NCBI RefSeq assembly: GCF_002223055.1
Contig: NZ_NKFL01000004.1
Location: 1,612,001-1,676,000 of the forward strand
Length of the DNA: 64,000 nucleotides
Source of the DNA: Burkholderia sp. HI2500
GTDB taxonomy: Bacteria; Pseudomonadota; Gammaproteobacteria; Burkholderiales; Burkholderiaceae
Direction: 5' to 3'
The number at the start of each line of letters is the position of its first letter. The first letter of the stretch is position 1. A program made the translations under genes and the position numbers. Of this stretch, positions 5,415-20,918 are shown piece after piece. The notes beneath the pieces were generated by a model. That model was not told the origin of the DNA. It worked only from the letters and a program-made list of their open reading frames with translations, and did not search any database.

Positions 5415-6056
5415 CTAGAACTTCATCCCGACGCCCACGCCGACGATCAGCGGATCGATGTGCAGCGTGCCGATGCCCTTGTCGCCCAGCGTCGCATCGG
5501 TGCTCATCCAGATCTTCTTCACGTCGACGTTCATGAAAATCTTCTTCGTCACCTGCACGTCCACGCCGAACTGCAGCGCGGGGCCGAAGCTGCTCTTGTT
5601 GATCGACACGCCCTGCCCGCCGACGTTGAGCCCGTTGTTGTAGAAGTACGTGTAGTTCACGCCCGCACCGACATATGGACGCACCTTGCCGGCATGATTG
5701 AAGTGGTACTGCAGCAGCAGCGTCGGCGGCAGCACGCCCACGCCGCCGAGATTGCCGACGCTCGACGTCAGCTGGTGCCGCGACGTGCCCAGGATCAGCT
5801 CGACGCCGAGGTAGTCGCGGATCATGTACGTGAAGTCGAGCTCGGGCACGATCGCGTTGTTCACCCCGACGTTGAGCGCACCCAGCGTGTCGCTCGCGCG
5901 TTCGTTCGGCTGGATGCTGATCGCGCGCAGCCGGACCAGGACGTCGCCCTGGTTGATGCCGTCGCCCGGCGAGGCTGCGTGCGACAGCGAAGGCATCGCG
6001 GCGAAAGCGACAGCAACGGCCGCAGCGGTGACACAAGTTCGAATCGTTTTATGCAT
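5415..6056 (-). CDS. OmpW-family outer-membrane beta-barrel protein
   Basis: A 213-residue exported protein. The signal peptide is about 27 residues long and ends ...SLSHA before ASPGD. The mature part starts GDVLVRLRAISIQPNE, typical of OmpW. Later OmpW features include LDFTYMIRDYLGVELILGTSRH, LPPTLLLQYHF, VRPYVGAGVNYTYFY and a terminal strand ending in Phe (VGVGVGMKF), the usual outer-membrane assembly signal. OmpW proteins form eight-stranded barrels with a hydrophobic channel, and exact substrates are unclear. The ATG at 6056 is preceded by GGGGGT. A short inverted repeat lies in the leader. Confidence 0.88.
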   Translation of the reverse strand: MHKTIRTCVTAAAVAVAFAAMPSLSHAASPGDGINQGDVLVRLRAISIQPNERASDTLGALNVGVNNAIVPELDFTYMIRDYLGVELILGTSRHQLTSSVGNLGGVGVLPPTLLLQYHFNHAGKVRPYVGAGVNYTYFYNNGLNVGGQGVSINKSSFGPALQFGVDVQVTKKIFMNVDVKKIWMSTDATLGDKGIGTLHIDPLIVGVGVGMKF

Positions 6057-6071
6057 GGTACGGACCCCCAA

Positions 6072-6088
6072 AGAATGGTTTCCATTCT
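6072..6088. repeat. Short perfect inverted repeat upstream of the OmpW-like gene
   Basis: AGAATGG and CCATTCT flank a three-base centre 16 bases upstream of the ATG at 6056, next to a TTGACG-containing AT-rich stretch. It could be an operator or a small leader hairpin. Only the symmetry is seen. Confidence 0.35.
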
Positions 6089-6121
6089 CCCTGTAGGGTC
6101 TTTTCTTTATCTTGATATTCG

Positions 6122-7312
6122 TCAAGCCAGCGTAAACGTGGGGCGGTTTGCCGCAGGCTCCGTCGCACAGCCCGTCAGCAGCAGGTCGAGCAAATCGCGC
6201 ACGCTGCGGATCGCACGGCCGAACGGCAACGCTTCGCGGCCGCGGAAGAACAGCCCGTTCGCCACGTCGCCGCGCAGCGCGGCCGCGAGCCGCGTATCGA
6301 TGCAGAAATGGCCGAACTTCTCGATGCCGTCGCGCAAGCCGCATACGCTCAGGCATTCGAGCGCGGTCGGGCAACGCTGTTTCAGCGCACCGAGCTTGGT
6401 GCGGATGCGCGTCTCGTTGCGCAGGTAACGATCGAGCCACGGCGTCTTCACCGCGCGCGCGGGCAACCCGGTCACGCTGACGAAGTCGACGATGTCCTCG
6501 GGCGTCGCGTCGGCCAGCACGCGCTTGAAGTGCGGATGCGCGTCGCCCTCTTCCGTCACCGCGAACGGCGTCCCCACCTGCACGCCGTTCGCGCCGGCGT
6601 CGAACGCCGCGCGCACCGTGTCGTGGCTGTTGATCCCGCCCGCAACGATCAGCGGGATCGTTTCGCGCGCGAGGCCGAGCGACGCCATCACCTGGGCGGT
6701 CTCGTCGAGCACGCGCGCGAAATCGAAGCGAGGGTCGTGCATGTCGTCGATCTGCGTGACGCCGAGATGGCCGCCCGCATGCGCCGGATGCTCGATCACG
6801 ATCGCGTCGGGCAGGCGCCCCTTCTTCATCCATTTCTTCAGCACGAGCGCGATCCCGCGGCTATCCGACAGGATCGGAATCAGCGCGATGTCGTGCCCTT
6901 GCGTGAGATCGGGCAGATCGAGCGGCAGGCCCGCGCCCATCACGATCGCGTCCGCCCCCTCGTCGCACGCGACCCGCACGTAGTCGGCATGCGCGCTCAC
7001 GGCCTTCATCACGTTGACCGCGATCATCCCGCGCCCTTCGCTGTAGGTCTTCGCGAGGCGGATCTCGCGTGCGAGCGCCTCGAGGTTCGCGGCCTCGAGC
7101 GTCGCGCGATCGGGTTGCGCGCGACAACGCGCGAGCAGGTCCGCATGATGGTGGCGCAGGTCGATGCTCGCGATCGTGCCGACCGCGCCTTCTCGCGCGA
7201 CGCTGCCCGCCAGCCGGTGCGCGGAGATGCCGACGCCCATGCCGCCCTGCACGACGGGCAACAAGGTGCGGCCGCGAATCGTCAGCGGCGGAAAGGAAGT
7301 GCGTACGGTCAT
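6122..7312 (-). CDS. Nitronate monooxygenase-like FMN flavoprotein
   Basis: A TIM-barrel flavoprotein of the nitronate monooxygenase/2-nitropropane dioxygenase family, which oxidises nitronates with FMN and oxygen. The 396-residue product begins MTVRTSFPPLTIRGRTLLP. Family motifs are VVQGGMGVGIS near residue 20, EHPAHAGGHLG (the AGGHLG segment carries the proposed catalytic His) and IVAGGINSHDTV plus GANGVQVGTPF for phosphate binding. After the barrel comes an extension of about 100 residues with four cysteines (KQRCPTALECLSVCGL...HFC). The start at 7312 has GAGG seven bases upstream. The physiological substrate is unknown. Confidence 0.82.
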   Translation of the reverse strand: MTVRTSFPPLTIRGRTLLPVVQGGMGVGISAHRLAGSVAREGAVGTIASIDLRHHHADLLARCRAQPDRATLEAANLEALAREIRLAKTYSEGRGMIAVNVMKAVSAHADYVRVACDEGADAIVMGAGLPLDLPDLTQGHDIALIPILSDSRGIALVLKKWMKKGRLPDAIVIEHPAHAGGHLGVTQIDDMHDPRFDFARVLDETAQVMASLGLARETIPLIVAGGINSHDTVRAAFDAGANGVQVGTPFAVTEEGDAHPHFKRVLADATPEDIVDFVSVTGLPARAVKTPWLDRYLRNETRIRTKLGALKQRCPTALECLSVCGLRDGIEKFGHFCIDTRLAAALRGDVANGLFFRGREALPFGRAIRSVRDLLDLLLTGCATEPAANRPTFTLA

Positions 7313-11325: not shown

Positions 11326-11874
11326 GTGATGCTTGCCCATCGACTGCTGCTGATCGCCGGCGCATCGGCCGCGCTGCTTTGGGGTTCCGGCACCGCCCGC
11401 GCGGCGACGGCGACGGCCGCCGCCGCATGCCCGTCGCCTTCGTTCGACCGCTATCCGGCACTCGCTGCGAGCGCGCCGCGCAAGCCGGCCGCGGCACCCC
11501 GCCTGACCACCAGGGAAACCCGCCGCTACCGCACCGTCATTCGCGACGAATTCACGCAACCGGCCAATTTTGCCGGCCACTACCGGGTCGCGGTCTGGGG
11601 TTGCGGAACGGATTGCCGGAATTTCGCGATCGTCGACAAGTACACGGGCGCGACGTACACGATGCCCGGCGTGCAGGCCATCGCAGGCGTGATGGGCAAC
11701 GACGAGGAGCGCGTCGATTTCCGTCCCGGCAGCAGGCTGCTGATCGTCGCGGGCTGCTTCAACGACGAATGCGACGACAACAGCGCGAAGGCCGCCCGGT
11801 TCTTCTACGCGTGGACCGGCACGCAGTTGCGTCGGATCGGCACCTGTCCGCTGGCGATCGAGCCGCTTCAGTAG
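11326..11874 (+). CDS. Exported cysteine-rich conserved hypothetical protein
   Basis: A product of up to 182 residues with a signal peptide ending near GTARA. The mature part carries a conserved-looking core, QPANFAGHYRVAVWGCGTDC then AIVDKYTG, and six further-spaced cysteines in pairs (ACPSP, GCGTDC, GCFNDEC, GTCPL) suited to periplasmic disulfides. I have the impression this core recurs in many proteobacterial hypotheticals, but I cannot name a domain. GTG (11326) and ATG (11329) are both possible starts; AAGGA at 11314-11318 gives spacing of seven or ten bases. Confidence 0.65.
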   Translation: MMLAHRLLLIAGASAALLWGSGTARAATATAAAACPSPSFDRYPALAASAPRKPAAAPRLTTRETRRYRTVIRDEFTQPANFAGHYRVAVWGCGTDCRNFAIVDKYTGATYTMPGVQAIAGVMGNDEERVDFRPGSRLLIVAGCFNDECDDNSAKAARFFYAWTGTQLRRIGTCPLAIEPLQ

Positions 11875-11959
11875 CCGACCGATGGATGCGCATGCCGCCG
11901 CTCGCCGCGACTTGCGCTATCGTTGCTCCGGTACACCTTGAACGGCGCACCCATCCGCG

Positions 11960-12535
11960 ATGTCCATTCGCCTCAGTTTCGACGACGGGCCCGGCCCCTC
12001 GACACCCTTCTTGCTCGATGTTCTGCACGCCGCGTCCTGCCACGCGACCTTCTTCCTGCTCGGCCAGAATCTCGCAGGCGCACTCGACGTCGCGGCAAGA
12101 ATGGCGAGCGAAGGCCACCTGCTCGGCAATCACACGCATTCGCACGCGAGGCCGGGCGCGCTGGCGAACGATGCACTGATCGACGAGATCGAGACGACCG
12201 ACGCGCTGATTCGCGAAGCCTATCGTCGAGCCGGCGTTCCAGCGCCGGACACGATTCCATTGCGCCTGCCTTACGGCCTGATGCCGGAGGACAGCCGCGC
12301 CGGCGTGCTGGCGCGGCTGCAGCGCGAACACACGGGCTGGACCGCGATACTGGACGACTGGCACCGGCCGGCGCCGTCGCCGCAGGCGCTGTTCGACGCG
12401 ATGTGCGCGCACGTCGACGCCAGCGCGGCACGGCAACGTGACGTGCTGTTCTGCATGCACGACGGATCGCGGCACGGCGAGGCGCGGCCCCATACGGTCG
12501 AAGCGGTACGCCTGTTCCTGAATCGGCCGCGCTGA
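11960..12535 (+). CDS. NodB-type polysaccharide deacetylase, minimal form
   Basis: A 191-residue protein consisting only of a NodB homology domain. Visible motifs are SFDDGP at the N-terminus (catalytic-base and metal Asp), HTHSH around residue 60 (metal His pair), RLPYG in place of the usual R-x-PYG and a late CMHDG. Family members remove acetyl groups from GlcNAc-type sugars or related amides with a divalent metal. There is no signal peptide, so it should act in the cytoplasm, unlike peptidoglycan deacetylases. Its stop is 12 bases from the convergent kinase gene, so it may belong with the cluster that follows, for example deacetylating a precursor. That link is inference. Confidence 0.75.
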   Translation: MSIRLSFDDGPGPSTPFLLDVLHAASCHATFFLLGQNLAGALDVAARMASEGHLLGNHTHSHARPGALANDALIDEIETTDALIREAYRRAGVPAPDTIPLRLPYGLMPEDSRAGVLARLQREHTGWTAILDDWHRPAPSPQALFDAMCAHVDASAARQRDVLFCMHDGSRHGEARPHTVEAVRLFLNRPR

Positions 12536-12547
12536 TAAAGCAGCCGG

Positions 12548-13513
12548 TTAGCGTACCGGCGCCGCACCACCGAGCAACTGCCTCCAGCCGCCGAGAAAGC
12601 CGATGCCCGGCCCCAGTGTCCACAGGCCGCGTTGTGCGGCTTCGAGATGGATCAGCGTCTGGTCCGCGCAGAACAGGGCCATCAGCGCATCGCGTCGATC
12701 ATGCATCCAGTCCGGCACGTCATCGGGCCGCGTCGCGGCATAGGCTTGCAGGCCAGCATCCCAGCGCTGCGCATCGAATACGAAGCGGTCGTCCCTGCCT
12801 GCATCGCGCGACAGCGCGAACAACGCAAAAGCCGCTTCGAGCCACTGCGCGCCCTGCCCGACATCGTCGAAATCGAGCACGCCGTTCACCGCGTGCCCCA
12901 CATACAGCAGGTTGCCCGCGTGATAGTCGCCGTGCAGCCAGTGCACCGCCCCCGTCAGCCAGCGGGCAGCAGCATCGAGATGTGCGCCGATCCAGTGAAT
13001 CATCGTCTCGTAGTGGCCGCTCAAGTCACCCGGCAACGACGGCGCAGCGCGCGCCGCGACACGTGCGTGGCGCGCAGACAGCCAGGCGAGCGGCGCCGAT
13101 TCGGTCACGGGTATCGCCGCCATCGCCGCATGCAGATGCGCAAGCGCACGCATCGCATCGATCGCGCCCGCCTCCGCTTCGTCCGGCAGGCCGGGGCGGC
13201 CGTCGATATGCTCGAACAGATGCAGCCAGCTTCCGTCGGGCAGTTGCACACCGGACTGTGCTTCAACGGTCGGCCGCAGCTTCGGCAATGCAGGCAGCAT
13301 CGGCGCCGCACGCGAGCGGCCGAGATGGCCGAGCATCGCCGCCTCGCGATGCACCTGCTCGACCGCCTTGCCGGGCCACGACACGCGCAGCACCGTAGGC
13401 CCCGCATCGCACTCGACGAGATACGTTTTGTTAGTATGGCCCGACGCCAGCGCGCGCAGGTGCGCCGGCCCGATGTTCCAGTACCGGTGAAGCCACGGTT
13501 CCAGCGTTTTCAC
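12548..13513 (-). CDS. Aminoglycoside-phosphotransferase-fold kinase
   Basis: A 321-residue kinase of the APH/choline-kinase fold. Catalytic motifs are WLHGDYHAGN at residues 192-201 (Brenner motif with catalytic Asp) and LDFDD at 213-217 (metal Asp). Upstream, LASGHTNKTYLVECDAGPTVLRVSW is the nucleotide-binding sheet. Family relatives include RdoA/SrkA stress kinases and small-molecule kinases, so the substrate is open. I choose the GTG at 13513 because AGGAG lies four bases before it; an ATG at 13540 would share bases with the divergent gene's start and has no ribosome binding site. It lies back to back with the CmcI-type gene. Confidence 0.72.
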   Translation of the reverse strand: MKTLEPWLHRYWNIGPAHLRALASGHTNKTYLVECDAGPTVLRVSWPGKAVEQVHREAAMLGHLGRSRAAPMLPALPKLRPTVEAQSGVQLPDGSWLHLFEHIDGRPGLPDEAEAGAIDAMRALAHLHAAMAAIPVTESAPLAWLSARHARVAARAAPSLPGDLSGHYETMIHWIGAHLDAAARWLTGAVHWLHGDYHAGNLLYVGHAVNGVLDFDDVGQGAQWLEAAFALFALSRDAGRDDRFVFDAQRWDAGLQAYAATRPDDVPDWMHDRRDALMALFCADQTLIHLEAAQRGLWTLGPGIGFLGGWRQLLGGAAPVR

Positions 13514-13538
13514 GTCACTCCTACTCGTTGCATTGACC

Positions 13539-14228
13539 ATGTCAGAGCGTCCCTCGGCCCGCATGCGGGACATCAATATCGAATGGCTGACGCGCGCTGC
13601 CGAATTCGACCATCTATTCCAGACGCGCTGGCTCGGCGAGCGCTTCTTCCACCTGCCCGGCGACATGCTCGCGCTCCAGGAGCTGATCTGGCGCGAGCGT
13701 CCCGACTGCATCGTGCAGACCGGGATCGCGGCGGGCGGCGGCGTCGTATTCTCCGCGTCGATGCTGGAACTGGCCGGCGACAGCGGCCGCGTCGTCGCGA
13801 TCGAGCCGCGCCTGCGCGACGAGGTCAGGCAGCGCCTGCAATCGCACCGGCTCGCCCACCGGATGACGCTGATCGAAGGCGAATCATGCGCGGCCGACAC
13901 GCTCGCCTCGGTGCGTGCGCAGATCGATGACGGCGCACGCGTGATGGCGATCCTCGATCTCACGCACACCCACGCGCACGTGCTGCGCGAACTCGAATGC
14001 TACGCGCCGCTCGTGACGCCCGGCAGTTACGCGATCGTGATGGACACCATCATGGAGTACCTGCCCGCGTCAATGTTCGACGGCAAGCCGTACGGCAAAG
14101 GCAACAACCCGGCCACCGCCGCGCATGAATTCCTCGCTCGCGACAAGCGCTTCGAGGTCGACTACGACATCGAGGACCGCGTCCTCATGACGCTGTCGCC
14201 CGGCGGCTTCCTGAAGCGAGTGCGCTGA
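13539..14228 (+). CDS. CmcI-type (cephalosporin hydroxylase/rhamnosyl O-methyltransferase) protein
   Basis: A 229-residue Rossmann-like protein of the CmcI family, whose members are SAM- and metal-dependent O-methyltransferases or tailoring enzymes of cephamycin and polyketide pathways. Matches include FHLPGDMLALQELIW, VQTGIAAGGGVVFSASMLE (cofactor loop), LIEGESC and LDLTHTHAHVLRELECYAPLV, the last equivalent to the family's LDSNHTHDHV segment. The segment that in relatives usually reads V/I-D-I-D-I-R is here IEPRLRDEVR, so the metal or cofactor site may differ. Its end overlaps the convergent glycosyltransferase gene by 44 bases. It is the only plus-strand member of the cluster. ATG at 13539 has no clear Shine-Dalgarno; 13569 (MRDINIEWL) is an alternative. 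Confidence 0.72.
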   Translation: MSERPSARMRDINIEWLTRAAEFDHLFQTRWLGERFFHLPGDMLALQELIWRERPDCIVQTGIAAGGGVVFSASMLELAGDSGRVVAIEPRLRDEVRQRLQSHRLAHRMTLIEGESCAADTLASVRAQIDDGARVMAILDLTHTHAHVLRELECYAPLVTPGSYAIVMDTIMEYLPASMFDGKPYGKGNNPATAAHEFLARDKRFEVDYDIEDRVLMTLSPGGFLKRVR

Positions 14229-15393
14229 TCAGGCGCGCCGCCTCGGCAGAACCGTCGCGCGACGCGTAGCTCGCGCGGATCCGCGCCGCCTGCTCGCGCA
14301 ACGTCCCGGGCCGCAGCAGGCGTTCGAGCGCAGCGGCGATGTCGGCCACGCCGGCCTGCTGCAGATCCAGCACGCACCCCGCGCCGGCCCGCTCGACGAA
14401 GTGCGCCGAATGGAACTGGTCATTGCAGAACGGCGACAGCAGCATCGGCACGCCGCTCGCAAGCGACTCCATCACCGAATTCGCGCCGCCGTGACTGACG
14501 AACGCGTGCGTGCGCTGCAGCAGTGCCAGTTGCGGCACGTAACGCACGGCGACCACGCGCTCGTCATCGGCCGGCAACAGATCCGAATCGACCAGCTCGC
14601 CCACCGACAGCACCAGTTGCGCCGACGTCGCGCGCGTCGCCTCGATGACCTTCGCAAACACGTCGGGATGGTAGTAAAGCTGGCTGCCGAGCGACATGTA
14701 GACCAATGGACGATCCGCATCGAGGCGTTCCCACGGGAACGGCGTCTCGTCGCCGCGCGGGCCGGACGGCATTGCCGGGCCGACCAGCTCGACACCCGGC
14801 GGCGGCGCACCGACCAGCGCGTCGGTCGTGAATGCGAGCGTCAGGTGCGGAGAGAGGATGTCGCATCCGCGAAAACGCGCGTCGAGCCCGTAGCGCGCGA
14901 ACAGCCGCGTGCGTTCCGGCGTGAGCCATCGCACCGTGCGCAGCAGTTCCGAATCGAGATCGTCCGGCAGCACCGGATTCAGCGAATTCGACATCGAGAC
15001 CCACGGCAGCCCTTCCAGTTCGGCGGCAATTGCCGCCGCATAGAGCAGCGGATCGATCACGACCACGTCGGGCCGCCAGTCACGCAGCACCGCGCGAATG
15101 CCGTCTACTTGCGCGGGCGCGAGATCGATCAGCAGCGTGCGGATCCAGTGCCGCAGCCAGGCCGCGTCGCGAATGTTCGCGGCGAAGCTCGCGCCGCGTG
15201 ACAGGTCATGGCGCTCGGGCGTCTCGCGCGGCCCGACGAATTCGAAGCCGCCGGCGCCGTCGAGCTGCGCACTGATGTCGGCCGGCGCATAGAACGCGAC
15301 GTCGCACCCGGCGGTGCGCAGATGCTGGGCCGGGCCGATACACGGATTGACGTGCCCCTTTTCGGGCACCACGCAGAACAGGATGCGTTTCAT
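14185..15393 (-). CDS. GT1-type (MGT-like) glycosyltransferase
   Basis: A 402-residue GT-B glycosyltransferase of the UDP-glycosyltransferase/macrolide glycosyltransferase type. It starts MKRILFCVVPEKGHVNP, the usual acceptor-domain loop. The donor site near residue 310 reads VSHGGANSVMESLASGVPMLLSPFCNDQFHSA, which contains the conserved HGG, E, P and DQ positions. Relatives attach sugars to small hydrophobic or natural-product acceptors. No signal or membrane segment is seen. It is last in a minus-strand operon, seven bases after the asparagine-synthase-like gene. The final 15 codons overlap the 3' end of the CmcI-type gene on the other strand. Confidence 0.82.
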   Translation of the reverse strand: MKRILFCVVPEKGHVNPCIGPAQHLRTAGCDVAFYAPADISAQLDGAGGFEFVGPRETPERHDLSRGASFAANIRDAAWLRHWIRTLLIDLAPAQVDGIRAVLRDWRPDVVVIDPLLYAAAIAAELEGLPWVSMSNSLNPVLPDDLDSELLRTVRWLTPERTRLFARYGLDARFRGCDILSPHLTLAFTTDALVGAPPPGVELVGPAMPSGPRGDETPFPWERLDADRPLVYMSLGSQLYYHPDVFAKVIEATRATSAQLVLSVGELVDSDLLPADDERVVAVRYVPQLALLQRTHAFVSHGGANSVMESLASGVPMLLSPFCNDQFHSAHFVERAGAGCVLDLQQAGVADIAAALERLLRPGTLREQAARIRASYASRDGSAEAARLISALASGSRRATAS

Positions 15394-15400
15394 GAACGAT

Positions 15401-16462
15401 TCAGGTTGGGCGATGCGCGGCATCGAGGTGGTCGAAATGATCGAGGATCAGCGACAGCGTCGTCCACAGCACGCGTTCGGTATCCGCCTGCAGCGTGGGC
15501 GCGGCCAGGCCGAGCGTGTCGGCCAGCGCGCGCGTGCGGTCGCGATCGAGCAGCGCCGCGAGATCCATTGCCGGGGCGAGCCGCCCGCGCTTCGGGCCGT
15601 GCACGAGACGGTCCGGCAGGTTCAGACGCGCGCCGAGATCGCGCAGGCACTGCTTGTCCGGGTCGGGCGCGATGCTCGTCAGATGCGCGACGACGGCAGC
15701 GTCGACGAACGGCGGATGCAGATCGACCGACGCCGCATCGAACAATGCATGGCATAGCGGCAGATAGTTGGCCGACTGATCGCGTCGCAGCACCTGATCC
15801 GCGCCGTCGCCGGTGATGGCCACCTCGACGCCGTCCGCGGCCATCGCCTCGGCGAGCAGCAGCTTCGCGACCGGATGCAGGTTGAACATCGGCTCCTCGA
15901 CCGCATGCGTCGTTCTCGGCAGCGCCGCGACGAAATCGGCCTCGTTCGCGCGCACGATCTTCACGTTCGCCTGCATCTGCGCGGCCAGTTCGAGTGCGGC
16001 ATCGCGCTCGCAATAGTCCGGCATGTCGGTCACGAGGACATAGGACGTCACGTGCCGCTGCGCGCCGAGTTCGCGCAGCAACGCGAGCAGCAACGCCGAA
16101 TCGAGCCCGCCGCTCAGCGCCAGCGCGACGCGCTTGCCGCTGTCGAGCGCGCGCTGCAGCGACGCGCGCAGCACGGTTTCCAGATCGGCGCGCTGCGGCT
16201 GCCCGGGTGCCGGCTGCACGGTCAGCCCTTGCGGCGAACGGATCAGCGCATGGCCGGGCGGCACCGCGCGCACGTCGCGCAACACGGTGCGGCCGACCAG
16301 CCGCTCGCCGCTCAGGTAACCGGCGATGGCCGCCGCGTCCGGCTCGCCTGCCGCTTGCCCCGACGCGTGCAGGACGGCCCGGATGCCGGACGCCGCCGCA
16401 CCGCTGCGCGGATGGTAGTGAAGCCGGTCGAAGCCGAACAGGTCGCGCGTGCCGACGATCAT
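15401..16462 (-). CDS. Asparagine-synthase-like amide-forming enzyme lacking a catalytic glutaminase domain
   Basis: A 353-residue protein whose residues 100-350 form an asparagine-synthetase ATP-pyrophosphatase domain. The PP-loop SGGLDSA is at 117-123, with later AVEEPMFNLHP and ITGDGADQVLRR, matching the acidic and GDGADE-like signature. The N-terminal 90 residues resemble only the end of the class II glutaminase domain (GTRDLFGFDRLHYH), and the catalytic Cys2 is absent. Such truncated forms act with free ammonia or other amines, or as adenylating ligases like beta-lactam synthetase. It overlaps the radical SAM gene by four bases (ATGA). Product unknown. Confidence 0.78.
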   Translation of the reverse strand: MIVGTRDLFGFDRLHYHPRSGAAASGIRAVLHASGQAAGEPDAAAIAGYLSGERLVGRTVLRDVRAVPPGHALIRSPQGLTVQPAPGQPQRADLETVLRASLQRALDSGKRVALALSGGLDSALLLALLRELGAQRHVTSYVLVTDMPDYCERDAALELAAQMQANVKIVRANEADFVAALPRTTHAVEEPMFNLHPVAKLLLAEAMAADGVEVAITGDGADQVLRRDQSANYLPLCHALFDAASVDLHPPFVDAAVVAHLTSIAPDPDKQCLRDLGARLNLPDRLVHGPKRGRLAPAMDLAALLDRDRTRALADTLGLAAPTLQADTERVLWTTLSLILDHFDHLDAAHRPT

Positions 16463-17337
16463 GGATAACGCGCCTTCAAGGCGTCCACTTCAATGCGTTT
16501 GAGGATGCGATGCGGCGCCACCGGCGCGCTGCCGCCCTGGCAATGCAGGCACGCTTCGAGCGGCGCCTCGCGTTGCAGATAGGCAAGCATCGCGTCGAGC
16601 ATGCCAGCGTCGTCGCACAGCGGCAGGCCGTCGGACTGAAAATCCTTCTCACCCTGGTAGAGCGTATGGAAATGCGCCGGACGCGTGCAGGTGTAGAACA
16701 TGCCGTCGCGAATCATATGGCAGCGCTCGCGGATCCAGCAATCGTGATAAAGGCGCTGCGCTGCGTCACGATCGGTGCCGGGCTGCGCACGGTTCATCGT
16801 CGTGAACACGTCCTGCACTTTCCAGTTCAGGCGCACGTCGAAGCGCGCGGCCTGGCGCTCGATGTGCGCGACCAGGTCGGGCGACAGCGACGGCTTCGGA
16901 TAGCGCGAGATCGTCAGCGCATCCACCGCCTGCCAGAACGCATCGGTCATCTCGCCGAGCTTCAGGCCGTTCGTCGTGACGGAGACCACGGGCGCGATGC
17001 CCGTGGCGCGCACGCGCTGGACGAGTTCGACGAGCGCCGGATGCAGCAGCGGCTCGCCGCCGACCAGCTTGAACATGCGCGGGCGCAGCACCTTCGCGGC
17101 GCGGCGCAGATCGGCTTCGATCGACGCGGGGCTTGCATACCACTCGGGCAGCAACGGCGACAGCGAGCAGCATTCCGCGCAGGTCAGGTTGCAGTGATCG
17201 ACGATGTGCGCTTCGAGCGAGCGCGTCAGCACGCGCCCGTCTTCGACGCGGTAATCGCGATCGAGCGGCGGCGGAAACACATGCTGCCGCTCGGTGGGCG
17301 GCGTCGGCTTCGACATCCGGTTCAGATTGGCATTCAC
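16459..17337 (-). CDS. Radical SAM protein
   Basis: A 292-residue radical SAM enzyme. The [4Fe-4S]-binding motif is CNLTCAEC (Cys49, Cys53, Cys56, spacing C-x3-C-x2-C), followed by the GGEP motif in KLVGGEPLLHP and a SVTTNGLKL strand. Late cysteines (YHDCWIRERC, YTCTRP, LEACLHCQGG) suggest an auxiliary Fe-S cluster of the SPASM or twitch type. The reaction is unknown; peptide or sugar modification is typical for such proteins. Start chosen: GTG at 17337, one base after the upstream stop with AGGA seven bases before; ATG at 17316 is an alternative giving 285 residues. Confidence 0.8.
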   Translation of the reverse strand: MNANLNRMSKPTPPTERQHVFPPPLDRDYRVEDGRVLTRSLEAHIVDHCNLTCAECCSLSPLLPEWYASPASIEADLRRAAKVLRPRMFKLVGGEPLLHPALVELVQRVRATGIAPVVSVTTNGLKLGEMTDAFWQAVDALTISRYPKPSLSPDLVAHIERQAARFDVRLNWKVQDVFTTMNRAQPGTDRDAAQRLYHDCWIRERCHMIRDGMFYTCTRPAHFHTLYQGEKDFQSDGLPLCDDAGMLDAMLAYLQREAPLEACLHCQGGSAPVAPHRILKRIEVDALKARYP

Positions 17338-17338
17338 T

Positions 17339-18331
17339 TCAGCGTCCTGCTTCCACACAACGGGAAAAGAAATCGACCAGACGGTCGCGCGCATCCACCA
17401 TCGCGGCGGCCATCGTCACCGCGCCGTTCAGATGCGATGCAAAGCGCGACGGATCGTCGAGCCAGCCTTGCACGATCCAGAGCTTGAGCGCGTGCTGCAG
17501 ACACGCGGCATCGACCGCCCAGGCAATGCGCGCGGGATCGACCGGCCGGGTCCGCCGATAGGCCAGCACGAACGCTTCCGCCAGATGCGGCGCCTCCAGC
17601 GGCAGATGGTTCAGGCAACGCACCAGTTCGTATTCACGCGGTGCGCCGATCGACGCTTCCCAGTCGAGAATGAGCGGCGGCAGCGTGCCCGTGAACAGAT
17701 AGTTGAACTGGTTGTAGTCGTTGTGGATCGGGTGCTGCGGATCGTCGGCGGGAAACGCGTCGATGCTGCCCGGATAGTAGCGGTCGAGCAGGCGCAGCGC
17801 GAGATCGACGTAGCGGCGCAGGTTGTCGGCGGCGTGGTTCGCGCGTGCGCGATCGAGTGCATCATGCAGGCTGCGGCGCACTGCGTCCGCGTCGATCGCG
17901 GTCAGGCGTGCGCGGATCGTGTCGAGCTGCGGCAAGTGAAGCTGCTCGAGCCTCAGATGCAATGCGGCCAGGCTCGCGCCGAGCGCATCCCATTCGGCCG
18001 GCGAAAACGTGTCGTAGGTTCTGAACTGCCCGGCTTCCCAGCGCGTCAGCATCGCGTGCGAGCCTTGTCCCGTCCACAGCGGCTCGCCGGACGTCGTGCG
18101 TTTCAGCATCTGCGCATGGAATCGGGGATCGCGATGCGTTTCCAGGTGAGCGAGCACGGCGGCCTCCTTGGCCGCACGCGCATGATGTTCGGACGCGTAG
18201 AGCTTGACCGCTACACCGCCGTCATCGGTCGGCAGGCGCCACACGCGTTCGCCGACCTGGCGCGGCGGCCCGCTGCGGCCCAGCGCATAGGCATCGCGGA
18301 TCTCGTCGAAGGTCGCGGCGAGCGAGTCCAT
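17339..18331 (-). CDS. Second aminoglycoside-phosphotransferase-fold kinase
   Basis: A 330-residue kinase of the APH fold. The catalytic loop is HNDYNQFN at residues 203-210 and the metal site is LDWEAS at 222-227, with Trp replacing the more usual Phe. The N-terminal lobe has VAVKLYASEHHARAAKEAAVLAHL, where the Lys and Glu are the expected ATP-binding pair. It differs clearly from the other APH-type gene of the cluster (12548-13513), so the two are not a recent duplication. The start codon directly follows the stop of the methyltransferase gene. The substrate is unknown, and a sugar or amino alcohol is plausible. Confidence 0.75.
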   Translation of the reverse strand: MDSLAATFDEIRDAYALGRSGPPRQVGERVWRLPTDDGGVAVKLYASEHHARAAKEAAVLAHLETHRDPRFHAQMLKRTTSGEPLWTGQGSHAMLTRWEAGQFRTYDTFSPAEWDALGASLAALHLRLEQLHLPQLDTIRARLTAIDADAVRRSLHDALDRARANHAADNLRRYVDLALRLLDRYYPGSIDAFPADDPQHPIHNDYNQFNYLFTGTLPPLILDWEASIGAPREYELVRCLNHLPLEAPHLAEAFVLAYRRTRPVDPARIAWAVDAACLQHALKLWIVQGWLDDPSRFASHLNGAVTMAAAMVDARDRLVDFFSRCVEAGR

Positions 18332-19081
18332 TCAGATGTGCTCGGCCGGCCCGTATCGATACGGATGGCCGCTCAGGAACGTGTTGTGCCCGACGTAGCG
18401 CACCTTGTACATCGCCGGGCGGAACAGCACCGAAGGCGCGTTGTTCGCGATGCCGAGCAGCGGGTACAGGTCCTGCCGCACGAAGAACGCGTTGTTGCCC
18501 ATGTCGTCGCAGCAGACGAGTTCATAACCCTTCTGCCGGCCGAGATGGACGAGCGATTCGAGGCTCGCGCCGTAATACGTCGAGCCGTCCCATTCGTGGT
18601 CCGGATTGAAGCACATGACCCAGCGCTCGGGCGGCGTGTAGTACGGGTTGTATTCGATCACGACGATACGCGGCTGGAATGCTTGCAAGCCGCGCCAGAC
18701 CCAGTAGTCGTTGCCGTCGATGTCGATCGACAGCAGGTCGAAGTCGGTTGGCGTGTTGGCATCGGCGAGCAACGTGTCGATCGTGTCGGGCTGGACGCGA
18801 TCATGGTGCAAGCGAACGCGTTCCGCTCCCGCGTAGTGGGCGGCAAGCTTGCCGAAGCGGTACGCGCTACCTTCCACCAGCACGCCGGACCAATCCCGTT
18901 CGCGCAGCAACCGCGCGGTGTTGCTGTTGCGCAGGCCGTCGCTTGCGCCGATATCGACGCAGAAGCGGTTGGTCGGTGCGATCCGCTCCATCAGGCGCGA
19001 CAGGATGCCTTCCTCGGTGCCCTGTGCATAGAGACTTGGCGCAAGGCCGGATAAATCGAGCGGGAGAGGATGGTCCTGCAT
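18332..19081 (-). CDS. FkbM-like SAM-dependent methyltransferase
   Basis: A 249-residue predicted methyltransferase. Motif I is FCVDIGASDGL at residues 40-50, the post-I region GVLVEGSAYRFGKLAAHY follows, and then comes LLSIDIDGNDYWVW (acidic catalytic or metal region) and VVIEYNPYY. This order is that of FkbM-type O-methyltransferases, but resemblance is moderate. It is the first gene of the five-gene operon. I use the ATG at 19081; an in-frame GTG at 19174 would add 31 residues rich in Pro, Ser and Gly that look non-native. The promoter should lie in 19082-19200. Confidence 0.68.
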   Translation of the reverse strand: MQDHPLPLDLSGLAPSLYAQGTEEGILSRLMERIAPTNRFCVDIGASDGLRNSNTARLLRERDWSGVLVEGSAYRFGKLAAHYAGAERVRLHHDRVQPDTIDTLLADANTPTDFDLLSIDIDGNDYWVWRGLQAFQPRIVVIEYNPYYTPPERWVMCFNPDHEWDGSTYYGASLESLVHLGRQKGYELVCCDDMGNNAFFVRQDLYPLLGIANNAPSVLFRPAMYKVRYVGHNTFLSGHPYRYGPAEHI

Positions 19082-19205
19082 CGAGGGGGCGGCTCCTGGT
19101 CGGAATTGAGGGTGGTATCCGGAGCGTAATTTACCCGAAGTCGATTGAGGGGAGGAAACGGGAATGTGCGACACCCCCGCGCTTCACCCGCACGGACATG
19201 AAAAA

Positions 19206-19235
19206 GCCCGCATCGACAATACTGTCGATGCGGGC
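19206..19235 (-). terminator. Strong terminator after ybiT
   Basis: GCCCGCATCGACA and its complement form a 13-base-pair stem around a four-base loop. On the minus strand it is followed by five T residues. It ends the ybiT transcript 90 bases past its stop and insulates the cluster operon that begins at 19081. Confidence 0.85.
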
Positions 19236-19325
19236 CCGATGCGCTTCTCGCGGCTTCGCGTTGCTATGCGCTCCAGCTTCGTACCACGGCCGGACCGCAA
19301 CACATGAACGGAAGCGTCAGGACAC

Positions 19326-20918
19326 TTACTCCTGCCCCTGACTCGTCAGGAACTCCTCGTAATTGCCGCCGAAGTCGAACAGCGTGCCATCCGTCCGCAC
19401 TTCGATGATCCGGTTTGCCAGCCCGCTCACGAACTCGCGGTCGTGCGACACGAAGATCAGCGTGCCTTCGAACTGCTCGAGCGCGATCTGCAGCGACTCG
19501 ATCGACTCCATGTCCATGTGGTTGGTCGGCTCGTCCATCAGCAGCACGTTGTGGCGGCCGAGCATCAGCTTGCCCCAGATCATGCGGCCCTTCTCGCCGC
19601 CCGACAGCACCTTCACCGACTTCTTGATGTCGTCCGACGTGAACAGCAGGCGGCCCAGCGTGCCGCGCACCATCGTTTCGTCGTCGCCGTCCTTGCGGTA
19701 CTGGTCGATCCAGTCCATCAGCGTGATGTCGTTCGGGAACTCCTCGTACGTGTCCTGCGGCATGTAGCCGACGTTCGCGTTCTCGGACCACTTCACCGTG
19801 CCGTGCTCGAGCTCGAGCGCGCCGAGCAGCGAACGCAGCAGCGTCGTCTTGCCCGCGCCGTTCTCGCCGATGATCGCGATCCGCTCGCCCGGCTGAACCG
19901 ACAGGTTGAAGTTCTGGAAGATCGTGCGCTCGTACTTCTTCGTGATCTCTTCAGCGACCACCGCGACGTTGTGCAGCTTCTTCTCGAACTCGAAACGGAT
20001 GAACGGGTTCTGGCGCGACGACGGCTTGAATTCCTCGATCTTGATCTTGTCGATCTGCTTCGCGCGGCTGGTCGCCTGACGGGCCTTCGACTTGTTCGCC
20101 GAGAAGCGGCGCACGAAGTCCTGCAGTTCCGCGACACGCTCCTTCGCACGCGTGTTCGCCGCGGCCTGGCGCTCGCGCGCCTGTGCCGACGCGAGCATGT
20201 AGTCGTCGTAGTTGCCCGGCCAGACCTTCAGCGTGCCGAAGTCCATGTCGGCCATGTGCGTGCACACCGAGTTCAGGAAGTGACGATCGTGCGAGATGAT
20301 GATCATCGTCGAGTTGTACTCGTTGAGCGTTTGCTCGAGCCAACGAATCGAGTTGATGTCGAGGTTGTTGGTCGGTTCGTCGAGCAGCAGCACGTCCGGC
20401 TTCGAGAACAGCGCCTGCGCGAGCAGCACGCGCAGCTTCCAGCCCGGCGCGACGTCGCTCATCGTGCCGTTGTGGAATTTCTCCTCGATGCCGATGCCGA
20501 GCAGCAGCGCACCCGCGCGCGCCTCGGCGTCGTAGCCGCCGTATTCGGCGAACTTGCCTTCGAGCTCGGCGGCGTGCATGTAGTCGTCGTCGGTGGCTTC
20601 CGGGTTCGCGTAGATCGCGTCACGCTCGGTCATGGCGGCCCACATCTCGGTGTGGCCCATCATCACGACGTCGAGCACGCGCACGTCTTCGTACGCGAAC
20701 TGGTCCTGGCGCAGCTTGCCGAGACGCACGTTCGGCTCCAGCGCGACGTTGCCGGCGCTCGGCTCGAGGTCACCGCCGAGGATCTTCATGAACGTCGACT
20801 TGCCACAGCCGTTCGCGCCGATCAGACCATAGCGGTTGCCCTCGCCGAATTTGACCGAGATATTCTCGAACAAGGGCTTCGGCCCGAATTGCATCGTGAT
20901 GTTGGCAGTAGAAAGCAC
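19326..20918 (-). CDS. ybiT: ABC-F translation factor YbiT
   Basis: A soluble ABC-F ATPase that acts on ribosomes rather than transporting. The 530-residue length equals that of E. coli YbiT and the N-terminus, [23 protein letters not shown], matches it almost word for word. There are two nucleotide-binding domains: Walker [10 protein letters not shown] and GENGAGKTT, and Walker [12 protein letters not shown] and [11 protein letters not shown]. The inter-domain linker ([21 protein letters not shown]) is the part that reaches the ribosomal P-site region. Start is GTG at 20918, ten bases after GGGA; the extra 44 in-frame upstream residues look spurious. A strong terminator follows. Confidence 0.92.

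What the first reader, a model, noticed from the sequence alone, without database searches (positions are those of the whole stretch)
11960..19081. Compact cluster of natural-product-type tailoring enzymes with no recognised pathway
Seven adjacent genes encode two APH-fold kinases, a CmcI-type enzyme, a GT1-type glycosyltransferase, an asparagine-synthase-like enzyme without glutaminase, a radical SAM enzyme and an FkbM-like methyltransferase; a NodB-type deacetylase adjoins them. Five minus-strand genes abut, overlap or are separated by no more than seven bases, so they should act together. There is no polyketide synthase, peptide synthetase or precursor peptide, which suggests modification of a sugar, amino-acid or nucleotide-derived core. 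I know no described system with this exact set.
Basis: partly seen in the sequence, partly recalled or inferred. Interest (0 to 1): 0.78.

Follow-up and report, generated by a model that had tools for sequence, protein, structure and literature searches.

The report
Conserved eight-gene sugar-tailoring cassette
Many Burkholderia and some related bacteria share the same compact set of eight genes, which looks like a pathway for an unknown sugar-based small molecule and includes a relative of enzymes that help make the antibiotics hygromycin B and spectinomycin.

The parts
11960..12535 (+). nodB-like: CE4 polysaccharide/chitooligosaccharide-type deacetylase, 191 aa, starts directly at the catalytic domain
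   Evidence: PF01522 1.4e-21; best NCBIfam match NodB TIGR04243 71.2 bits, below its 240 cut-off; motif residues D, H, R, D and H kept in 26 of 26 loci, one further D in 25 of 26 (L080 repeats L027)
12548..13540 (-). aph1: APH-fold kinase, 330 aa
   Evidence: PF01636 4.5e-23 (translated from 13519); HGDYHAGN and DFDD kept 26 of 26
13539..14228 (+). cmcI: PF04989 rhamnosyl O-methyltransferase/CmcI family, 229 aa; its start codon overlaps the aph1 start codon head to head (CATG)
   Evidence: 6.4e-62 (translated from 13533); N-terminus conserved to Bordetella, which supports this start
14185..15423 (-). gt1: GT1 (macrolide/EryCIII-like) glycosyltransferase; ATG 15393 is the likelier start
   Evidence: UDPGT 2.8e-20; TIGR01426 138.7 bits, below cut-off 260; closest PDB chains are GT1-type glycosyltransferases, best E 5.4e-26
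15401..16462 (-). asn: asparagine-synthetase-like ATP-dependent ligase without the N-terminal glutaminase half, 353 aa
16459..17337 (-). rSAM: twitch radical SAM enzyme of the SpeY/HygY group, predicted epimerase; start GTG 17337 or ATG 17316
17339..18331 (-). aph2: APH-fold kinase, 330 aa, divergent
   Evidence: most listed relatives carry PF01636; HNDYNQFN and DWE kept 26 of 26
18332..19081 (-). fkbM: FkbM-type SAM methyltransferase, 249 aa, first gene of the five-gene run
   Evidence: PF05050 4e-9 (translated from 19174); this ATG is present in 14 of 14 other loci printed
19126..19135 (-). conserved GGTAAATTAC element 45-54 bases before fkbM, candidate promoter element
   Evidence: kept as GGTA(A/C)ATT(T)AC or close to it in 10 of the 14 other loci printed, weaker in one, not in the three Bordetella (by eye; 15 of the fetched loci were given to that script, one has no fkbM); no sigma-70 consensus match
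19204..19237 (-). likely intrinsic terminator between the upstream ABC-F gene and the cassette
   Evidence: 15-pair stem with T tail, strongest of 4 sites found in 11800-19400, where shuffles give 3.2 on average

Best explanation
A self-contained eight-gene cassette, spread between genera as a unit, encoding a cytosolic pathway for a small amino-sugar glycoside, in the chemical style of aminoglycoside tailoring. Proposed route (inferred): the GT1 enzyme transfers an N-acetylhexosamine (or other sugar) from an NDP-sugar to a small acceptor; the NodB-type enzyme removes the acetyl group; the glutaminase-less AsnB-like enzyme adenylates a carboxylate and joins it to the freed amine or another amine; the SpeY/HygY-type radical SAM enzyme inverts one hydroxyl-bearing carbon; the CmcI- and FkbM-type enzymes O-methylate; the two APH-type kinases phosphorylate, to activate an intermediate, to keep it inactive, or to protect the producer. 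Shown: gene set, linkage, conservation, intact motifs, absence of the glutaminase half, placement of the radical SAM enzyme. Inferred: order of steps, substrates, product, role.
Against: No aminocyclitol- or deoxysugar-forming gene, no transporter and no regulator among the eight, so an aminoglycoside in the strict sense is unlikely, and an exported antibiotic would need housekeeping export. No inositol-1-phosphate synthase in the genome, so self-made inositol is not the acceptor. The rSAM is only about 32-37% identical to SpeY and to the SAT1 protein, so its substrate cannot be read across. The co-divergence is also expected from shared species history. In seven of the eight cassette-free regions the p11326 homologue was not found beside the ABC-F gene, so the site is variable.
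Confidence: 0.55

Rival explanations
1. The cassette decorates a cell-surface or flagellar glycan: FkbM, CmcI-type, AsnB-like and radical SAM enzymes tailor sugars later built into LPS, capsule or glycoprotein.
For: FkbM, CmcI-type and AsnB-like genes are recalled from O-antigen and glycan islands; one Bordetella relative of asn is named 'O-antigen biosynthesis aminotransferase' by its source.
Against: No flippase, polymerase, sugar-nucleotide synthesis or polyprenyl transferase gene among the eight. No glycan locus recognised by eye in about 5 kb of flank on each side in the loci translated (five loci, of which L038 gave few readable ORFs; no family search was run on flanks). All eight are soluble by hydropathy and NodB begins at its catalytic domain, without room for a signal peptide.
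Confidence: 0.2
2. An intracellular metabolite built by mycothiol-like logic (glycosyl transfer, N-deacetylation, ATP-dependent ligation of an acyl or amino acid to the glucosamine), acting inside the cell as a cofactor, thiol or osmolyte rather than as an exported antibiotic.
For: Glycosyltransferase, deacetylase and adenylating ligase are the three core steps of mycothiol-type pathways (recalled); no transporter or membrane protein in the set; low dN/dS.
Against: Homology to the mycothiol enzymes was not tested; the ligase is AsnB-like, whereas the mycothiol ligase is recalled as CysRS-like. No inositol-1-phosphate synthase. Patchy distribution (34 of 65 Burkholderia genomes lack it) argues against an essential cofactor.
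Confidence: 0.15
3. A detoxification or resistance cassette: the APH kinases, glycosyltransferase and methyltransferases modify a foreign aminoglycoside- or macrolide-like compound.
For: APH-fold and macrolide-GT-like families include resistance enzymes; the site next to the ABC-F gene takes up other DNA in some strains.
Against: Eight enzymes with an epimerase and an amide ligase are more than detoxification needs. The three resistance-named glycosyltransferase models that matched gt1 scored 52-93 bits against cut-offs of 700-800, and no resistance model matched the two kinases at E 0.001.
Confidence: 0.07

Closest known systems
SpeY (spectinomycin) and HygY (hygromycin B), twitch radical SAM dehydrogenase and epimerase
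   Same: Fold, three radical-SAM and four twitch cysteines, near full-length alignment; Cys at HygY position 183 as in the SAT1 hygromycin-type cluster protein. The SAT1 cluster, like this cassette, holds glycosyltransferases and an APH gene
   Different: About 32-37% identity. The SAT1 cluster also has aminotransferases, alcohol dehydrogenases, a SIS protein and ABC transporter genes, of which this cassette has none; it instead has an AsnB-like ligase, a NodB-type deacetylase and two methyltransferases
E. coli AsnB, beta-lactam synthetase, carbapenam synthetase
   Different: The first 114-132 residues of those chains (glutaminase domain) have no counterpart in the model or in 32 of 32 aligned rows
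NodB and other CE4 deacetylases
   Same: CE4 motifs (named from recall); best NCBIfam match is NodB
   Different: 71.2 bits against a cut-off of 240; no NodA- or NodC-like gene among the eight
Bulgecin of Burkholderia (sulfated glycopeptide)
   Same: A Burkholderia-made sulfated glycopeptide (passages of PMC5472815); its GlcNAc and its amide are recalled
   Different: No sulfotransferase or NRPS gene here; the paper had not located the bulgecin cluster, so no sequence comparison was made
Mycothiol-type pathways
   Same: Glycosyltransferase, N-deacetylase, ATP-dependent ligase logic (recalled)
   Different: Ligase of another class (recalled), extra epimerase, kinases and methyltransferases; no inositol-1-phosphate synthase

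Membership tests
SpeY/HygY twitch radical SAM epimerase/dehydrogenase group (rSAM protein) | CxxxCxxC radical-SAM cluster plus four twitch cysteines | tested here: met
   C42, C46, C49 and C193, C210, C256, C259 invariant in 30 of 30 rows, aligned with the SAT1 protein and the SpeY fragment
SpeY/HygY twitch radical SAM epimerase/dehydrogenase group (rSAM protein) | Whole-fold match | tested here: met
HygY-type epimerase as opposed to SpeY-type dehydrogenase | Cys H-atom donor at HygY position 183 | tested here: met
   C199 invariant in 30 of 30 rows, aligned to residue 183 of the SAT1 protein, Ser in SpeY. Position number and role are recalled; the paper's title, naming a single cysteine, was seen in reference lists
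Epimerase activity on a sugar or cyclitol | Turnover of substrate | not testable with these tools
   needs protein and substrate
Aminoglycoside/aminocyclitol biosynthetic cluster | Carbocycle- or deoxyaminosugar-forming genes in the cluster | tested here: not met
   none among the eight genes; no PF01658 in the genome (other carbocycle-forming families were not searched genome-wide); so it is not filed as an aminoglycoside cluster
Glutamine-dependent asparagine synthetase | N-terminal glutaminase domain with nucleophile Cys | tested here: not met
   absent in 32 of 32 rows; model covers AsnB 133-508 only
NodB (equivalog TIGR04243) | Score above curated cut-off | tested here: not met
   71.2 against 240 bits
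Prokaryotic viperin (anti-phage) | Score above the curated NCBIfam cut-off | tested here: not met
   NCBIfam 36.9 bits against cut-off 180; PADLOC match covers residues 35-137 only, 42.4 bits, E 1.3e-11

The most novel reading that the evidence does not exclude
The cassette makes a previously undescribed class of amino-sugar metabolite (deacetylated, N-acylated, epimerised, O-methylated, phosphorylated glycoside) by a route that takes its acceptor straight from central metabolism. It circulates as one eight-gene unit among Burkholderiales families, and perhaps in Rhodanobacteraceae, outside the actinobacteria in which SpeY/HygY chemistry is known; and it may work inside the cell, since no exporter travels with it.
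Probability: 0.35. Interest if true: 0.8.

Novelty: new variant of a known kind. Interest (0 to 1): 0.6.

Why it matters
If right, a compact and experimentally tractable pathway for an unknown sugar-based metabolite sits in 31 of the 65 Burkholderia genomes searched, Burkholderia cepacia complex species among the named carriers, and would extend SpeY/HygY radical chemistry to proteobacteria. It also gives a natural set of glutaminase-less AsnB-like ligases for study. The eight-gene boundary, defined by different flanks and by an empty site, tells an experimenter what to clone or delete.

Tried and rejected
Papers: ten searches of the open-access library. The gene-set searches gave one paper on Rubrivivax biofilm that holds five of six terms but not 'radical SAM' and two empty lists. 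SpeY and PDB-code searches gave nothing; a broad one returned butterflies and surnames. The HygY paper is not held. Searches gave listings, mostly off the point; of these papers only passages of PMC10991966, PMC10863075 and PMC5472815 were read. Bulgecin was considered and set aside: no sulfotransferase or NRPS here, and no bulgecin cluster sequence to compare.

Wider genome searches. Burkholderiaceae sample, fkbM at E 1e-30: 28 of 329 genomes; 23 are Burkholderia (own included), three are other genera with 81-83% identity and the full cassette (G732, G746, G884), two are solitary weak 33% matches not followed. Class sample, rSAM at E 1e-20: 2 of 369, the window's own and one gene at 34% with no cassette gene seen in the 3.7 kb returned. 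Order sample, asn at 1e-30: 1 of 300, own only. Phylum sample, rSAM alignment at 1e-30: 1 of 398, own only. In these samples only the best few candidates per genome were scored. In one search, 51 of 65 genomes match at E 0.001, but the 20 beyond the 31 have only weak matches (E 6.4e-6 or worse), read as unrelated radical SAM genes.

In protein databases (120 listed of 526, 159 and 210 hits) relatives of rSAM, asn and aph2 share contig lengths down to 45-59% identity (for example a 366,900-base contig), and Luteibacter proteins appear in all three lists. That is indirect; no such locus was fetched, so whether the whole cassette exists in Rhodanobacteraceae or Myxococcota is open.

A viperin (anti-phage) reading was rejected. 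No Rfam match. No direct or inverted exact repeat of 9 bases or more between 11841-11975 and 19061-19760, so the cassette's own mode of insertion is unknown. No sigma-70 consensus promoter.

Internal stops were reported for six of the 31 genomes, where the query included an upstream extension; in the two checked with the shorter protein there were none; the other four were not checked. aph1 of Bordetella genomosp. 13 aligns in two pieces, not resolved. The two internal stops that flags in aph1 lie at the very C-terminus.

Full report
What is there. Between 11960 and 19081 lie eight intact genes with almost no space between them. On the minus strand, in order of transcription: fkbM (19081-18332), aph2 (18331-17339), a radical SAM gene (17337-16459), asn (16462-15401) and gt1 (15393 or 15423 to 14185). 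On the plus strand: cmcI (13539-14228), convergent with gt1 and overlapping it by 44 bases. Then aph1 on the minus strand (13540-12548), whose start codon overlaps that of cmcI head to head (CATG), and nodB on the plus strand (11960-12535). Families were checked with Pfam and NCBIfam. Upstream of fkbM a likely terminator (19204-19237) follows the ABC-F gene, and a short element GGTAAATTAC (19126-19135) is kept in 10 of 14 other loci printed.

A unit, not a coincidence. A scan of one genome per species for asn relatives returned 23 loci; 22 carry all eight genes in the same order and orientation and one runs off its contig. They come from Burkholderia, Paraburkholderia, Trinickia and Bordetella. 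Flanks differ between genera: ABC-F and AsmA genes in most Burkholderia; sugar ABC transporters in a Paraburkholderia MAG, MFS and Crp-type genes in P. bannensis, P450 and DctA-like genes in Bordetella (these flank names are my reading of translations, not a family search). Within Burkholderia, 31 of 65 genomes have the close radical SAM orthologue (E below 1e-150) and exactly the same 31 have nodB (E below 1e-30); in 30 of 31 both lie on one contig with about 3.9 kb between them, and in G050, a fragmented assembly, on two contigs. The ABC-F neighbour, by contrast, is in 64 of 65.

Of eight regions downstream of the ABC-F gene fetched from cassette-free genomes, none holds a cassette gene. In one, G009, the ABC-F end and the p11326 homologue lie about 100 bases apart where the window has 7.4 kb; in the other seven the p11326 homologue was not found there, so the site is variable. 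In G015 the cassette lies on a different contig from the ABC-F gene, so it also sits elsewhere. All eight genes show dN/dS of 0.065-0.340 in six comparisons, and pairwise protein distances correlate at 0.889-0.974 over 26 rows, although shared species history contributes to that.

How it most likely works. Sugar transfer by GT1, deacetylation by NodB, amide formation by the AsnB-like ligase, hydroxyl inversion by the radical SAM enzyme, O-methylation by the CmcI and FkbM enzymes, and phosphorylation by the kinases, on one small glycoside. Only the presence, linkage and integrity of the enzymes is shown; order, substrates and product are inferred. The genome has no inositol-1-phosphate synthase, so self-made inositol is not the likely acceptor. 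No transporter or regulator belongs to the unit, which leaves open an intracellular role.

Limits. The chemistry cannot be read from sequence alone. The literature library is open-access only. Distant relatives outside Burkholderiales were seen only as single proteins sharing contig lengths, and broader genome samples found no further cassette.

Noticed in passing
window 19326-20894 (ABC-F gene); L021 5024-5137; L025 5054-5182; L086 6534-6704 with ORF 5645-6538: The 3' end of the ABC-F gene looks like an integration hotspot: partial 3' copies of it lie apart from the gene with other genes in between in several Burkholderia, one beside an ORF that I read as a broken or diverged integrase. The cassette sits right at this end in the window.
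   Followed up: partly
window 13538-13541: aph1 and cmcI start head to head with overlapping start codons (CATG), kept in 14 of 15 other loci printed, so neither has an intergenic promoter.
   Followed up: partly
L045 1387-2349: A SpeY/HygY-like radical SAM gene (34% identical) with the HygY-183 cysteine in a distant genome of the same class, between genes that I read as ParA-like and GGDEF-like, with no cassette gene in the 3.7 kb seen.
   Followed up: no
L042 10903-12177: aph1 in Bordetella genomosp. 13 aligns in two pieces separated by about 255 bases, perhaps an insertion or a diverged stretch.
   Followed up: no
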